From the NCBI GenBank assembly GCA_903843965.1, contig CAIMRY010000017.1, positions 186,001-250,000 of the forward strand: DNA of 64,000 bases. The letters are read 5' to 3'. The stretch's first letter is position 1, and every line of letters begins with the position of its first letter. The notes under the pieces are model-generated. The model had not been told where the DNA came from. It did no database searches and saw only the letters and a program-made list of their open reading frames with translations. Below, piece by piece: positions 2,338 to 63,043 of the stretch. The position numbers and the translations under genes are program-made. Source of the stretch: an uncultured delta proteobacterium (GTDB lineage: Bacteria; Desulfobacterota; Desulfovibrionia; Desulfovibrionales; Desulfovibrionaceae).

Positions 2338-2347
2338 CCTCCGGCGG

Positions 2348-2377
2348 CCAAGGGGCCTGAGGCCCCTTGGAACCCCC
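2348..2377 (+). terminator. stem-loop with C-run tail after the RND gene
   Basis: A perfect 10-bp stem (arms 2348-2357 and 2361-2370) closes a TGA triloop and starts 10 bases after the pump stop codon. It is followed by AACCCCC (2371-2377) instead of a T-run. Its position suggests a terminator or a 3'-end stabilising structure. The missing U-tract makes classical intrinsic termination uncertain. Confidence 0.55.
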
Positions 2378-2626
2378 ATCGGCCTGGGCCAGGGTGGCGC
2401 GGGCAGACAGGGAAGGCCGGGCGTGGTCCTGGCGAGGTGCGCGGCTGCCCCCCTCAGGGTGGGTCAAGCGTGTTGAGTCCAAGTCCAACCGCATACCCCG
2501 GCCATTGCACCCACGAATGCATCCCAGCACCACCCAAAGCGAAAGGTTCCGGTCGACGGTTTAGCGTCGAGAGGAACCTATCGCTGAATGGGGGGGGGGC
2601 GTAATGAACCCTGAAGGGGGCTCCAC

Positions 2627-2643
2627 AGCCGCCGGAGGCGGCT
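2627..2643 (-). terminator. stem-loop just downstream of csoR-like gene
   Basis: A perfect 7-bp stem, AGCCGCC / GGCGGCT, closes a 3-base loop. It lies 17 bases beyond the stop of the leftward repressor gene. There is no U-run, so termination is inferred only from position. Confidence 0.4.
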
Positions 2644-4777: not shown

Positions 4778-4913
4778 GCCGGGCGCTAGCACGGGCTGGG
4801 GGTGCGGGCATCTTTGTGTTACGTATGCGCCGCGCCGCCTAATGAGATGCCAGGCGGAAGAAGGTGGGCGCCGCACTTTTGAGGCATCCCGCGCGTTTTC
4901 CAAAAGGACACGT

Positions 4914-5837
4914 ATGGACATCAGGACACTCATAGAGGAGGGCGCGAGCGGCGAACAAATTGTGCGCATGTTCAGCATCGAACGCTATGCATGGATGACG
5001 TTGTCCTATGATATGGTCATTGTCTTGGATACGGAAGGGAATATTGTGGCGGTCAACACCGCCTGGCAGCGTGCTTCGGGCCACTCGCAGGAGACGTTGA
5101 CCGGAAAGTACCTTCTTGAGTTCATCGACTTTGAAAATCGGGAACGCATACTGGCCAGCTTTCAGCACCTCATCATCAGCAATGCCGCCACCACCACGTT
5201 CGCTTTCCCGTTCCGCTGCGCCGATGGTGAATTCAAACGCTTTAATTGGAATGTACTCTATTCACCTGATTTTGAAGTCTTCTTTTGCACCGTCAAGGAC
5301 CTGAGCGATGTCAATAATATCCGGCACGTCGCCTACCACGACACCTTGACCGGGTTGCCAAATCGACTCTACCTCTCGGAAATTCTGCCGGACTTGATCG
5401 CATCCGCCAAGCAGCACAATGAGTCCTTGGCCTTTCTGCTCCTTGACCTTCATGAATTCAAGCAGATCAACGACACCCTGGGCCATCACGCCGGAGACAT
5501 CCTGCTGCAAGTCATGGCTGAACGCCTGCGCCAGTGCTTGACGAACCCGGAATACTGCGCCCGGCTTGGAAGCGCAAAATTCGCGCTTCTACAAACGCCT
5601 TGTGATCGCGGCGAAGCCTTGCGCCTCGTTCAAGAGATCATCGCCGCAGTGAACCAGCCAGAAGAGATCAACGGCAATGAGGCCCACGTAGGAGCGATAC
5701 TCGGCATCGCCTTGGCTCCGAGCGATGCCGATACGCCGACGGCCATCATGGAACTGGCCGACCACGCTTTGGAAGCAGCCAGACGGGGCGGTGAAAACAG
5801 CGCCGTATTTGCCGACAGCGCAGGAACTTTCGAGTGA
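4914..5837 (+). CDS. PAS-GGDEF domain protein with degenerate GGDEF motif
   Basis: The 307-residue protein has an N-terminal PAS sensor (about residues 30-145) and a diguanylate-cyclase-like domain (about 150-300), recognisable by HDTLTGLPNRLYLSEIL and LLLDLHEFKQINDTLGH. At the active-site hairpin, where GG[D/E]EF is expected, the sequence is GSAKF (context ARLGSAKFALL), so GTP cyclisation is unlikely. Degenerate GGDEF domains often act as GTP/c-di-GMP sensors or protein-interaction modules. There is no EAL domain. I chose the ATG at 4914 because AAAAGGA precedes it; an in-frame ATG at 4842 lacks such a site. There is no signal peptide or membrane segment. Confidence 0.88.
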   Translation: MDIRTLIEEGASGEQIVRMFSIERYAWMTLSYDMVIVLDTEGNIVAVNTAWQRASGHSQETLTGKYLLEFIDFENRERILASFQHLIISNAATTTFAFPFRCADGEFKRFNWNVLYSPDFEVFFCTVKDLSDVNNIRHVAYHDTLTGLPNRLYLSEILPDLIASAKQHNESLAFLLLDLHEFKQINDTLGHHAGDILLQVMAERLRQCLTNPEYCARLGSAKFALLQTPCDRGEALRLVQEIIAAVNQPEEINGNEAHVGAILGIALAPSDADTPTAIMELADHALEAARRGGENSAVFADSAGTFE

Positions 5838-10482: not shown

Positions 10483-10554
10483 CGGTCCGCCTGCGGACCG
10501 CCACAGGATTGTGGCGAGAACCGGAGGGCGTTTTTGCCCTCCGGAGGCTTTTTT
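10482..10554 (+). terminator. intrinsic terminator after carB (two stem-loops, U-tail)
   Basis: A first stem, GCGGTCCGC / GCGGACCGC (10482-10501), overlaps the carB stop. The second is a classical terminator: a perfect 9-bp stem CCGGAGGGC / GCCCTCCGG (10521-10529 and 10536-10544), loop GTTTTT, then AGGC and a T-run at 10549-10554. It separates carB from purF. Confidence 0.9.
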
Positions 10555-26386: not shown

Positions 26387-26569
26387 ACTGTTCCCAGATC
26401 AGCGCAGCCAGCCCAAAGCTTGCTGAGGGGGCGGCCACGGTCAACAAGGTCGACGCCCGTGTTTCCTAGCGTCTTGGGATACAGCTCAACGTCAACTATT
26501 GGCATTCGTCTAGTGTTTTTCTAGAGCCCATCCCTGGACAGAACCACCGCTGCCGTGCGAGTTGCGGAC

Positions 26570-27286
26570 ATGATCGAGCTGCTCGAAATCGTCCACCAGG
26601 ACCAGCGCATCCTGGTGCAGGTCAACCGCGACCGCTTCCGCACCCTGCGGCTTTCTGTAAGGCCGGAGGGCTCCGTGGTGGTCCGCGCGCCGCGCAGGGC
26701 CAGCCAGGCGCAGATCCACGCGCATGTGGAAAGCAAGGCCGCATGGATCGCACGGCACCTGGAGCGCTTCCGCACCCTGCGCGAGGCCAGGCCGCAGCCG
26801 CTGGCCTACTTAAGCGGGGAGACCCACGCTATTCTCGGCCAGGAGTACGTGCTGGAGGCCCGCCAGGCCGAGCGCAACGCCGTGCGCCTGGAGGCAGGCA
26901 CCCTGGTGGTGACCACGCGCTTTCCGCCCCGGCCGGACACAGTGAAGAAGCTGCTCGACGCCTGGATCGTTGAGCAGGCGCGGGAGCTGTTCCTGCGCGT
27001 GCTGCGCGAGCTTTTGCCGGTGGCCGCCGCCTTTGGTGTGCCGCGCCCGGCGCAACTGAAGATCAGGGCCATGACCAGCCGCTGGGGCACCTGCTCGCGC
27101 TCCGGGTCCATCACCCTGAACCGGCACCTGATGCGCGCCCCGCTGCCCTGCGTGGAGTACGTGGTGGCGCACGAGCTGTGCCACCTGGTGCACCACGGCC
27201 ACGATGCGCGCTTCTACGGCCTGCTCGCGGCCCTCATGCCGGACTGGAAGGCGCGCCGCCTGCGCCTGCGCTCGGTGCCCATTTAG
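26570..27286 (+). CDS. YgjP/SprT-like zinc metallopeptidase (DUF45, M48-like)
   Basis: The 238-residue soluble protein has the zinc-peptidase signature HELCHLVHHGHDARF near its end; the two His of HExxH and a downstream His bind zinc. Upstream, TSRWGTCSRSGSITLNRHL is typical of the YgjP/DUF45 family. A GTG at 26555 is an alternative start five codons earlier; neither start has a strong ribosome binding site. The physiological substrate is unknown. The 183 bases before the gene show no clear signal. A double hairpin module follows the stop. Confidence 0.85.
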   Translation: MIELLEIVHQDQRILVQVNRDRFRTLRLSVRPEGSVVVRAPRRASQAQIHAHVESKAAWIARHLERFRTLREARPQPLAYLSGETHAILGQEYVLEARQAERNAVRLEAGTLVVTTRFPPRPDTVKKLLDAWIVEQARELFLRVLRELLPVAAAFGVPRPAQLKIRAMTSRWGTCSRSGSITLNRHLMRAPLPCVEYVVAHELCHLVHHGHDARFYGLLAALMPDWKARRLRLRSVPI

Positions 27287-27295
27287 AAGCTTTGT

Positions 27296-27353
27296 CAGGG
27301 GGCGTTGCCCCCTGAACCCCCACAAGAGGGCCTGAGGCCCTCTTGACTCCCCC
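27296..27353 (+). terminator. double hairpin module with C-run tails, plus-strand copy
   Basis: Hairpin A has an 8-bp perfect stem CAGGGGGC / GCCCCCTG with loop GTT (27296-27314), followed by AACCCCC (27315-27321). Hairpin B has a 10-bp perfect stem with a TGA loop (27323-27345), followed by ACTCCCCC (27346-27353). The module starts 10 bases after the metallopeptidase stop. It has the same design as the single hairpin at 2348-2377. There is no T-run. Confidence 0.6.
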
Positions 27354-27403
27354 GTAGGTCGAGCCGGGGCCTATTTCCCCCGCCGCTCCGGCCCAGGCCC
27401 TAC

Positions 27404-27459
27404 GGGGGGTCCGGGGGCCTCAGGCCCCCGGCGGGGGTGCCGGGGGCGGAGCCCCTGGC
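27404..27459 (-). terminator. double hairpin module with C-run tails, minus-strand copy
   Basis: Read on the minus strand from the mqnD stop, hairpin A' (27439-27459) has a 9-bp stem with one G-U pair and loop TCC. An ACCCCC tail follows (27433-27438). Hairpin B' (27411-27431) has a 9-bp stem and a TGA loop, then ACCCCCC (27404-27410). It mirrors the plus-strand module, so each convergent gene ends in the same device. Between them a 10-bp long-range inverted repeat (27349-27358 with 27399-27408) could pair the two. Confidence 0.6.
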
Positions 27460-28325
27460 TATTCCGGCAAGAACACATCCTCCGGCAGCGGGCCCAGACC
27501 TTCCGCGCGGCGCGCCTCGGCCATCAGCGCCAGGGTTGCGGCCTCGCCCTCGGGTCCGATGTCCAGACTGGCCTCGGTGACGAACATCTTGATGTGCCGG
27601 GCGATGACGCCGGGGTCCATTTCCTGGGTGTGGGCGCGGATGTATTCGCGGCTGGCCTCGGGGTGGGCGCGGGCGTGCTCCAGGCTGGCGCGGATGCCCG
27701 CGTTCACGGCCCGGGCCAGATCAAGCCCCGGCGTCAGATCCAGCGACCGGCGCAGGACGATGCAGCCCAGCGGGATGGGCAGGCTGCGCTCCTGTTCCCA
27801 CCACGCGCCCAGGTCCAGCAGCCGCGTGAGCCCGTGCTCGGCGTAGGTGAAGCGGCCCTCGTGGATGACCACCCCGGCTGCGCAGTCGCCGCTGGTCACG
27901 GCGGGCATGATCTGGTCGTAGACCAGCTCCACGGGTAGCGGCTGGATGCCCCGTTCCCGGCAGAGCAGCCCGAAGATGAGGTTGGCCGTGGTGCGGCGGC
28001 CAGGGATGGCCACACGTTTGCCGTGCAGGTCCTCCAACCGCGTCCCGGCCCGGCTGACGAGGATCGGACCCACGCCCCGGCCCAGGGCCCCGCCTGCGCG
28101 CAGCAGGCGGTACTCGCCCAGCACCCCGGCGGCGGCGGCCACAGAGACCTTGCAGACATCCGGCAGCCCGGCGCTGGCGGCCTGGTTCAGCCGCTCCACG
28201 TCGGCCAGGGTCACGTCAAAATCCACGTTGGCGTCCACACCTGGAACGCTGACCAGCCCCGTGGCCAGGGCGTGGAAGATGAAGGTGTCGTTGGGGCAGG
28301 GCGAGTAGTGCAGCGACAGGCGCAT
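27459..28325 (-). CDS. mqnD: 1,4-dihydroxy-6-naphthoate synthase
   Basis: This is a late step of the futalosine route to menaquinone: conversion of cyclic dehypoxanthinyl futalosine to 1,4-dihydroxy-6-naphthoate. The 288-residue protein has a periplasmic-binding-protein-like fold and begins MRLSLHYSPCPNDTFIFHAL, the family start motif. VVIHEGRFTYAEHGL, another conserved segment, lies mid-protein. The ATG at 28325 is preceded by AGGAGG. It is transcribed away from tetR-mqnECA, unlike the usual single-direction clusters. Menaquinone serves as the membrane electron carrier for anaerobic respiration. Confidence 0.95.
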   Translation of the reverse strand: MRLSLHYSPCPNDTFIFHALATGLVSVPGVDANVDFDVTLADVERLNQAASAGLPDVCKVSVAAAAGVLGEYRLLRAGGALGRGVGPILVSRAGTRLEDLHGKRVAIPGRRTTANLIFGLLCRERGIQPLPVELVYDQIMPAVTSGDCAAGVVIHEGRFTYAEHGLTRLLDLGAWWEQERSLPIPLGCIVLRRSLDLTPGLDLARAVNAGIRASLEHARAHPEASREYIRAHTQEMDPGVIARHIKMFVTEASLDIGPEGEAATLALMAEARRAEGLGPLPEDVFLPE

Positions 28326-28410
28326 GGCGGCCTCCTGGACTTCTGTTTCTTTTCGGGCGGTTGTCGTGCCGGTTGACGCGCTGGTTGCCGCTTCCGGTCG
28401 CTCCCATGTG

Positions 28411-28453
28411 TTGACAGCGGGGTCGCGCAAGCATAGGAATGACCACCCGGTCA
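28411..28453 (+). promoter_or_regulatory. promoter of tetR-mqnECA with a TetR-type operator
   Basis: TTGACA (28411-28416), a 17-base spacer and TAGGAA (28434-28439) form the promoter. A palindrome TGACC-accc-GGTCA (28440-28453) begins at the base after the -10 box, covering the predicted transcription start. TetR-family dimers bind such inverted repeats, so the tetR product encoded 90 bases downstream is the likely ligand. That is inference. Whether the divergent mqnD promoter shares it is unclear. Confidence 0.6.
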
Positions 28454-28542
28454 CTTGTCCGGCAGCCTACCCGGAGCGCTTCCGGGTGGCAAGCCAAAAC
28501 GGTCGGCACCATAGCGGCAGGCCCGCAAAAACTGCAGGACAT

Positions 28543-62966: not shown

Positions 62967-63043
62967 TGGCAGGCCAGGTAGGATTCGAACCTACAGCGTC
63001 CGGTTTTGGAGACCGGTGCTCTAGCCGTTGGAGCTACTGGCCT
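62967..63043 (-). tRNA. trnW: tRNA-Trp (anticodon CCA)
   Basis: The minus-strand cloverleaf has a 7-bp acceptor stem AGGCCAG / CTGGCCT, a D-arm GCTC...GAGC, anticodon stem CCGGT...ACCGG with loop CTCCAAA, and a T-arm GTAGG-TTCGAAT-CCTAC. The discriminator is G and CCA is encoded (62967-62969). It lies between rpmG and secE, a common position in proteobacteria. Confidence 0.96.

What the first reader, a model, noticed from the sequence alone, without database searches (positions are those of the whole stretch)
27296..27459. Two copies of a double-hairpin 3'-end module, tail to tail, with C-runs instead of U-runs
Each convergent gene (the metallopeptidase and mqnD) is followed on its own strand by two GC-rich stems. 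Each stem is directly followed by A-rich then CCCCC. The second hairpin has a TGA loop on both strands. A 10-bp long-range inverted repeat links the two modules. The arrangement covers almost the whole 172-bp gap. A repeated hairpin + C-run is not a classical intrinsic terminator; it may be a mobile extragenic element, an RNA-stability device, a Rho-linked signal or a C-tract protein-binding site. Seen directly: stems, loops and tails. Function is inference.
Basis: partly seen in the sequence, partly recalled or inferred. Interest (0 to 1): 0.6.

Follow-up and report, generated by a model that had tools for sequence, protein, structure and literature searches.

The report
Palindromic repeat unit between two genes
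The hairpins between these two genes are one copy of a repeated, mirror-shaped DNA unit that sits at gene ends in this group of bacteria, sometimes even supplying a gene's stop signal, and its C-runs are half of a central stem rather than terminator tails.

Summary
The gap between the YgjP-like peptidase and mqnD holds two outward-facing double hairpins, and the C-run of one pairs with the G-run of the other at the base of a central stem. The second hairpin (UGA loop) plus tail is a dispersed repeat: 67 covariance-model hits in the 3.56-Mb genome, 2 to 126 in the 15 genomes of its genus, hits in 59 of 199 genomes of its family and in 4 of 297 of a phylum sample, all four in that family. Stems change by compensatory swaps under a nearly constant loop. 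Hits follow same-strand genes in 58 of 65 cases; 1 of 44 occupied gaps is divergent. Orthologous gene ends tend to be occupied in two species (both in 9 of 58 pairs; p = 2e-4), usually by different versions, some inverted. The loop UGA is the gene's own stop codon at 5 hits, and at queC in three species. The relative with the most similar MqnD lacks the unit there. This is a REP/REPIN-like family without the usual tags and, in its genus, without a detected Y1 transposase. Its RNA role (3'-end protection or weak termination) is inferred.

The parts
26555..27286 (+). YgjP-like metallopeptidase gene, left neighbour
   Evidence: ORF 243 aa; Pfam PF01863 E 1.3e-54
27295..27315 (+). outer hairpin HP1, 9 bp, loop GTT
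   Evidence: same hairpin with a compensatory outer pair in L036
27323..27345 (+). inner hairpin HP2, 10 bp, loop TGA
   Evidence: R1 hit G000:C17:213321-213361
27349..27358 (+). C-run and GTAGG: 5' side of the base of the central stem
   Evidence: pairs with 27399-27408
27359..27398 (.). interior of the central stem; by eye both sides resemble the start of a module seen in longer units (GTAGGGCCTGGGCCGG...)
   Evidence: not tested statistically
27399..27408 (+). CCTACGGGGG: 3' side of the base of the central stem; on the - strand it is the C-run after HP2 of the mqnD side
27411..27431 (-). inner hairpin HP2 of the mqnD side, 9 bp, loop TGA
   Evidence: R1 hit G000:C17:213394-213434
27439..27459 (-). 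outer hairpin HP1 of the mqnD side, loop TCC, one mismatch; shares one base with the mqnD stop codon
27459..28325 (-). mqnD (menaquinone biosynthesis), right neighbour; start at 28325 chosen by me within the ORF 27459-28454
   Evidence: Pfam PF02621 E 1.6e-69
2338..2643 (+). second copy of the family in the window: left arm CCTCCGGCGG + HP2 2348-2370 + CCCCC; what looks like a remnant right end GCCGCCGGAGGC at about 2629-2640
   Evidence: R1 hit G000:C17:188346; right end by eye

Best explanation
The feature is one copy of a dispersed palindromic mosaic unit, HP1-HP2-[central stem whose base is C-run against G-run]-HP2'-HP1', that resembles a REP doublet (REPIN/BIME-like). Shown by sequence: it is repeated; its stems covary under a nearly constant UGA loop; it sits at gene 3' ends with the arms facing outward; copy number differs greatly between sister species; occupied sites tend to be shared by two species while the version, and at some sites the orientation, differs; its loop can be the stop codon of the upstream gene. 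Inferred: it spreads and is exchanged by recombination between copies or by a mobiliser not identified here. Once at a gene end it is transcribed from either side and gives the mRNA a stable double-hairpin 3' region, which most likely hinders 3' exonucleases and limits read-through (useful between convergent genes) without being an efficient or essential terminator.
For: Repeat: 67 R1 hits in G000; 2-126 over the 15 genus genomes. Covariation: 8 of 10 HP2 pairs change on both sides, covariation score reached by 0 of 500 shuffles; in 8 short units 13 of 47 pairs change on both sides, 12 of them in the central stem; C-run pairs with G in 13 of 14 units. Place: upstream gene on the same strand for 58 of 65 hits that have one; 44 gaps with hits are 23 convergent, 20 co-directional, 1 divergent, against 38/154/53 for all gaps of 100 nt or more on three contigs; co-directional gaps with a single hit are 15 sense to 1 antisense (p 5e-4). 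Doublets: adjacent hits within 420 nt are 19 tail-to-tail, 1 direct, 0 head-to-head in G000 and 16 tail-to-tail in the G002 sample; 9 of these 35 pairs are 75-81 nt and 14 are 221-309 nt apart. Orthologous 3' ends G000/G002: 9 both, 6 and 4 one only, 39 neither. Better aligned inverted: C6:17824 (137 v 68), C39:278 (176 v 146 over 330 nt, 176 v 89 over 220), C26:31075 (234 v 124). Stop codon.
Against: No RNA data. The unit is absent at the mqnD site of the relative with the most similar MqnD (G009, 89%), where the two stop codons are 9 nt apart, so it is dispensable there. Only 2 of 603 inner HP2 pairs are G-U while 49 are mismatches, which points to palindrome upkeep at DNA level as much as to RNA selection (the model was built on Watson-Crick stems). 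Where one species lacks the unit, a U-run hairpin is not clearly commoner: 3 of 10 against 15 of 78, p 0.42. Y1_Tnp found in 0 of 15 genus genomes. 12 of 35 pairs have other spacings, no null model for spacing was run, and some copies are single or lack a clear central stem. On the other strand the C-run pairs in 10 of 14 units, not 13. Upper central stem only 76% paired across the 8 units; one of five covariation measures of HP2 (pair types) does not exceed shuffles. One copy in another genus lies between ATP synthase a and c genes in one direction, which speaks against strong termination. The two ends of one gap are not independent, and part of the G000 stretches was picked for hits.
Confidence: 0.62

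Rival explanations
1. Selfish or neutral REP-like repeat: it spreads by an unknown route, survives only where it does no harm (after stop codons, away from promoters), and has no role in the host.
For: Copy number 2-126 within one genus; absent at mqnD in G009; 3 hits in G004; versions swapped between species; uneven distribution in G002: 2 hits in C8:1-400000, 32 in 200 kb of C2 and C4.
Against: Hairpins intact at sites shared by species whose flanking proteins are 67-96% identical; sense bias in co-directional gaps; loop stop codon shared at queC by three species. None of these excludes it.
Confidence: 0.25
2. Dedicated terminator of a non-canonical kind (hairpin cluster without U-run), selected gene by gene, like the poly-U-free hairpin clusters proposed from RNA-seq (PMC8355165).
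For: Close behind stop codons, median 28 nt to the model start; double hairpin at convergent ends; hairpins with C-run outnumber those with U-run at 3' ends in the G000 sample (52 v 22 of 460).
Against: Few stem families shared by many sites and recurring pair spacings point to copying, not independent origin; missing at mqnD in G009; only 4 of 222 ends in the G004 sample; C-runs are paired; a copy between ATP synthase a and c genes.
Confidence: 0.12
3. C-tract function as first suggested: Rho loading or a C-run-binding protein.
For: A C-run follows nearly all hits, also one-sided copies.
Against: The run is short, next to G-rich structured sequence, and paired to G in 13 of 14 short units. 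Rho and protein binding themselves were not testable.
Confidence: 0.04
4. Chance GC palindromes in a GC-rich genome.
For: Window 64% GC; hairpins of 7 bp are common in Markov copies too, 261 v 300.
Against: Shuffle z -6.2, 15 exact cores v 1, 67 model hits.
Confidence: 0.01

Closest known systems
REP sequences, GTAG/CGTC-tagged families (PMC3733652: section 15 and passages read)
   Same: Short palindromes in many copies, close to gene 3' ends, in convergent and co-directional gaps, often as inverted dimers, sometimes giving the stop codon
   Different: GTAG in the 22 nt after the stem in 4 of 67 hits, CGTC in 1 of 67; usually two hairpins per arm; UGA loop nearly constant while stems change; stop codon in the loop, not in the tag; G-U pairs nearly absent (2 of 603), whereas that paper takes G-T pairs as support for transcription
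REPINs (REP doublets forming hairpins; PMC3116915: abstract and passages seen)
   Same: Inverted doublets, recurring spacings, a spacer that can pair; singles look like remnants
   Different: No Y1 transposase detected in 15 genus genomes; the spacer is itself a long covarying stem or a set of further modules
BIMEs of enterobacteria (start of the abstract of PMC2817692 in a listing; passages of PMC2267715)
   Same: Mosaic of palindromes in alternating orientation; reported attenuation and mRNA-stabilising effects give a model for function
   Different: Different lineage; no sequence comparison with them was made
Hairpin-cluster intrinsic termination (PMC8355165: abstract and section 13 read)
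   Same: Two adjacent hairpins soon after the stop codon, no U-run
   Different: That work found C/G runs to be rare after such hairpins; here the run is part of a further stem and the unit is a repeat

Membership tests
GTAG/CGTC-tagged REP | GTAG or CGTC at one end of the palindrome | tested here: not met
   4 of 67 and 1 of 67 in the 22 nt after the stem; the other end of the palindrome was not scanned for the tags
GTAG/CGTC-tagged REP | many extragenic palindromic copies per genome | tested here: met
   67 hits; two flagged as inside a gene call, both at one pair, C17:163799/163815
RAYT-mobilised REP/REPIN | REP-associated Y1 transposase in the genome | tested here: not met
   PF01797 in 0 of 15 genus genomes (8 of them at least 90% complete), control rings in 5 of 14. 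But in 15 other copy-bearing genomes of the family, picked by me, 9 have Y1 matches; RAYT or IS200 type not told apart
RAYT-mobilised REP/REPIN | repeats flank the transposase gene | tested here: inconclusive
   G099: Y1 at 3512.6-3513.0 kb, none of the 15 listed hits within 150 kb; weaker hits are not listed
REPIN | REP copies organised as inverted doublets | tested here: met
   19 of 20 adjacent hit pairs within 420 nt in G000 and 16 of 16 in the G002 sample are inverted, tail to tail
REPIN | preferred spacing of the doublet | tested here: inconclusive
   9 of 35 pairs at 75-81 nt, 14 at 221-309 nt, 12 elsewhere; no null model
MITE | target-site duplication and a related transposase | not tested
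   element ends not defined well enough
canonical intrinsic terminator | U-run directly after the hairpin | tested here: not met
   ACCCCC, ACTCCCCC and ACCCCCC after the stems
Rho-dependent terminator | unstructured C-rich, G-poor region and Rho dependence (definition recalled) | not testable with these tools
   region is G-rich and folded; dependence needs an experiment
any Rfam 15 family | gathering score | tested here: not met
   only a tRNA at 62970-63043 in the window; three weak matches at 27200-27560, all far below their gathering scores

The most novel reading that the evidence does not exclude
A travelling 3'-end cassette: a palindromic unit that arrives at gene ends, supplies both a structured mRNA end and, through its UGA loop, a stop codon, and is then exchanged and flipped in place by recombination among copies, so that the site stays occupied while its sequence turns over between species.
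Probability: 0.25. Interest if true: 0.65.

Novelty: new variant of a known kind. Interest (0 to 1): 0.45.

Why it matters
It gives a repeat family, seen almost only in the window's family (Desulfovibrionaceae by record titles), with REP-like placement but, in this genus, no Y1 transposase found, so it is a test case for how such repeats spread and persist without their usual mobiliser. Swapped and inverted versions at shared sites, with an empty site known at mqnD, let site turnover be measured. If the RNA role is real, it would be one way to end convergent genes in a GC-rich lineage. Annotators should know that some C-terminal tails, such as ASGGQRA in QueC and IspG, are repeat-encoded.

Tried and rejected
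C-run as hairpin tail: rejected. RAYT-mobilised REP in this genus: one search found no Y1_Tnp, run to strengthen that, found Y1 genes in 9 of 15 other copy-bearing genomes, so the wider claim 'no mobiliser' is not made. Loop UGA as a general back-up stop: rejected, phase to the upstream stop is 18/18/15 over 51 hits; it is the real stop at 5 hits. One search listed six loop stops; the sixth (C17:163799) is an ORF antisense to the called genes and was dropped. Replacement by U-run terminators at sites lacking the unit: single examples look convincing, the count does not (3 of 10 v 15 of 78). Mutual exclusion of unit and U-run hairpin: 0 of 460 G000 ends have both, but with 52 and 22 singles about 2.5 are expected by chance, and G002 has 2 of 480, G004 1 of 222, so nothing is claimed. 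Two of the ten 'one only' ortholog pairs are detector misses by eye (C9:12007, C6:134641), and one 'unit' (C32:48810) is a long hairpin of another kind. Inversion: of 11 pairs scanned over 330 nt, 5 score higher inverted and 6 direct; because the units are near-palindromic I claim only C39:278 and C26:31075 from that scan, plus C6:17824, which came and just missed the coverage cut of the 58; C39:24553 was first counted as inverted, but the longer comparison prefers direct (147 v 100), so it was dropped; C9:12007, C9:18935 and C9:19223 (71 v 49, 85 v 57, 137 v 56) are left open. G000 v G004 gave 9 usable pairs, one with a unit in G000: too few. First gene calls were misled by opposite-strand shadow ORFs and were redone with codon pairs. 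Two of 30 rows, opposite-strand readings of one pair, were left out of the model. Six of 67 hits fell in no gap between two called genes and were left out of the gap counts. My pattern for HP1 was too strict; the larger figure is by reading. Paper searches whose listings gave nothing on this family.

Full report
1. What is there. The window is G000:C17:186001-250000 of a 3.56-Mb, 46-contig genome. Its nearest named mqnD relatives are L036 (83% identity, a MAG titled only Proteobacteria) and L037 (78%, a MAG titled Humidesulfovibrio). By identical hit statistics L036 lies in G005 (listed again as G040) and L037 in G001 (listed again as G041), both in the window's genus. So the genus is probably Humidesulfovibrio; this rests on that one title. 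Both strands fold far better than shuffles. No Rfam family reaches its threshold there.

2. It is a repeat. The HP2 core pattern occurs 15 times against 1 for the reversed pattern. A covariance model of HP2 plus tail (R1, 28 sequences, 10 pairs) gives 67 hits in G000 at E <= 0.01. Over the 15 genomes of the genus, G000 to G014, the counts are 67, 8, 126, 73, 3, 106, 24, 4, 2, 52, 17, 11, 60, 46 and 21 (at most 150 candidates scored per genome; some genomes are incomplete). In the family 59 of 199 genomes and 12 of 44 genera have hits at E <= 1e-4 (stricter filters, 32 candidates scored). In a phylum sample 4 of 297 genomes have hits, all four in the same family (22 candidates scored). Among 40 relatives two genomes of another family of the order had one hit each. 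Two copies lie in the window itself: this one and one at about 2338-2643.

3. Anatomy. In the sense direction an arm is HP1, then HP2 with a UGA loop, then A or a few letters, then a C-run. In the 67 hits a CCTCCGGCGG-type small hairpin precedes HP2 in 40 and a GGGGC-NNN-GCCCC type in 6 by pattern; reading the 21 others finds about 14 more of the second type. HP2 stems are of several kinds (CCAAAGGGCC, CCAAGGGGCC, CCGGGGGCC, GGGGGGAA, GGGGGACT) under one loop: 59 of 67 loops are TGA. Eight of ten pairs change on both sides; 93.9% of cells pair; none of 500 shuffles reaches the covariation score, though the number of pair types does not exceed shuffles. The 28 hairpins were found by Watson-Crick pairing, which favours intact pairs, but that does not explain exchange of whole pairs under one loop.

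4. The C-run. Adjacent hits within 420 nt are 19 tail-to-tail, 1 direct and 0 head-to-head in G000, and 16, 0 and 0 in the G002 sample. Of the 35 tail-to-tail pairs 9 are 75-81 nt apart (start to start), 14 are 221-309 and 12 lie elsewhere. In the 14 units with spacing up to 100 nt the usual fold is HP2, a long central hairpin, HP2'; at least 3 letters of the C-run pair with G in 13 of 14, and on the other strand in 10 of 14. In eight aligned units 13 of 47 pairs change on both sides, 12 of them in the central stem, and the four C-G pairs at its base are invariant; the upper central stem is 76% paired across the eight (structure taken from row 1). In the window's unit all 5 letters of the + strand C-run pair. 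In a copy from another genus (L168) the centre is almost only CCCCCCC-GTC-GGGGGGG. Long units carry further modules between the arms, where the C-run has no near partner; some copies are single.

5. Where it sits. With improved gene of 65 hits that have an upstream neighbour follow a same-strand gene. The other 7 are 6 antisense in co-directional gaps, 5 of them the second arm of a pair, and one mismatched copy in a divergent gap. Of the 58 distances from stop codon to model start, 48 are 3-70 nt, 5 are negative (loop stops, below) and 5 are longer. The 61 placed hits lie in 44 gaps: 23 convergent, 20 co-directional, 1 divergent; all gaps of 100 nt or more on C17, C6 and C19 are 38, 154 and 53. 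On those three contigs alone it is 7, 10 and 0 (convergent enrichment p 0.0075). Co-directional gaps with one hit are 15 sense and 1 antisense (p 5e-4). Because each hairpin is a palindrome, this bias needs either a role for the order of parts in the RNA or loss of the arm nearer the next gene's start; I cannot separate these.

6. Turnover between species. For 58 orthologous gene pairs of G000 and G002 with at least 60 nt of 3' flank in both, 9 have the unit in both, 6 only in G000, 4 only in G002 and 39 in neither (Fisher p 2e-4). Some of these are the two ends of one gap, part of the G000 sample was chosen for hits, and the detector makes errors (see Tried and rejected). By eye the HP2 type differs at 7 of the 9 shared ends. 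At three sites the unit aligns better inverted: C6:17824 (137 v 68), C39:278 (176 v 146 over 330 nt) and C26:31075 (234 v 124). At C6:17824 the next gene is also an ortholog; at C26 the far flank has changed. In the scan of 11 pairs 5 scored higher inverted and 6 direct. Inversion in place, replacement by another copy, and assembly error in such palindromes are all possible.

7. The mqnD site across the genus. Of 15 genomes 14 have an mqnD match, one of them partial, and I read all 14 flanks. G000, G002 (88%) and G005 (86%) have the unit between mqnD and the peptidase. G013 (81%) keeps one full arm, a central hairpin and a remnant of the other arm. G009 (89%, the most similar) has none, the two stop codons being 9 nt apart. 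In G003 mqnD runs into a unit and stops at the loop (…ETASGGWGE). In the other 8 I recognised neither the peptidase nor this unit by eye. Most simply the unit was there early and was lost in G009 without a hairpin in its place; no tree was built.

8. The loop as stop codon. At five hits the loop TGA ends the upstream gene. By Pfam these are ispG (C11:26163, GcpE), a glycosyl transferase (C19:86990), an aminotransferase (C23:89984), queC (C28:24830) and an AcrB-type pump (C43:34464). For queC, 13 of 15 genomes had a match and were read. In G000, G002 and G005 the protein ends …ASGGQRA, …ASGGQGA and …ASGGQRA at the loop. G003 and G013 stop inside the unit at a TAG or TAA. G006, G014 and G001 have their own stop followed by related hairpins; G011 has its own stop and then a half unit; G007 has a U-run hairpin; G004 shows none; G010 and G008 were read past a stop and not judged. 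PMC3733652 reports that GTAG REPs often give flanking genes a TAG stop, so the phenomenon is known in kind. Here the stop is the loop.

9. What it is. Many traits match REP dimers: gene-end placement, convergent and co-directional gaps, inverted doublets, overlap with coding ends (PMC3733652 section 15; PMC3116915 passages). It fails the tag test (GTAG 4 of 67, CGTC 1 of 67) and, in this genus, the RAYT test (0 of 15). In 15 other copy-bearing genomes of the family 9 have Y1 matches, so a Y1 transposase may have spread it elsewhere; in G099 none of the 15 listed hits lies near its Y1 gene. PMC3733652 itself points to REP-like families without conserved terminal motifs in other bacteria. I therefore call it REP-like and not a REP of those families. 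In what I searched I found no description of it: 'Desulfo' does not occur in the main text of PMC3733652 or PMC2267715, occurs once in PMC12306157, for Desulfotalea, and the listings held nothing on it. Most subscription papers are not in that library.

10. How it probably works. Read from either gene, the RNA gains one or two strong hairpins within tens of nucleotides of the stop codon, followed in short units by a long stem. By analogy with BIME and REP work (abstracts and passages only) this should hinder 3' exonucleases and slow RNA polymerase, and between convergent genes reduce antisense read-through. That is inference: there are no transcript data here, the unit is dispensable at mqnD in G009, and one copy in another genus sits between the ATP synthase a and c genes in one direction (L168). 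The near absence of G-U pairs (2 of 603, with 49 mismatches) fits palindrome repair at the DNA level or a need for the fold on both strands.

11. Verdict. A new variant of a known kind of repeat, of moderate interest; the strongest points are shared sites with swapped versions, and the loop stop codons.

Noticed in passing
G002:C3:117882 to 148297: The two genes that flank one G000 unit (C26:31075/31261) lie 30.4 kb apart in G002, with AT-rich DNA next to broken unit ends: looks like an island inserted at the unit.
   Followed up: partly
L036 about 4899-4963; G000:C6 near 180-250: A shared segment (CTGTCGACAGCCGTAAG...TAACGGCTGACG) sits inside or beside the units; it may be a separate small repeat.
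   Followed up: no
G002:C8:1-400000 against 200 kb of C2 and C4: Hits are unevenly spread along the chromosome: 2 in 400 kb, 32 in 200 kb.
   Followed up: no
L168 (G019), 1472-1592: A compact unit lies between the ATP synthase a and c genes, all in one direction: inside an apparent operon.
   Followed up: partly
G000 C19:74288 onward and many others: A second repeated hairpin family, GCCGAAAGGGCTGTTTCAGG...CCTGAAACAGCCCTTTCGGC, often follows the C-run.
   Followed up: partly
window 10521-10544: A GC hairpin with a T-run (CCGGAGGGC...GCCCTCCGG aggcTTTTTT), so U-run terminator-like sites exist beside the repeat.
   Followed up: no
G010 (L232), G002: A sister species has the same stem with a TCCCC loop, and G002 also has TTAA loops: the UGA loop is not universal.
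   Followed up: no
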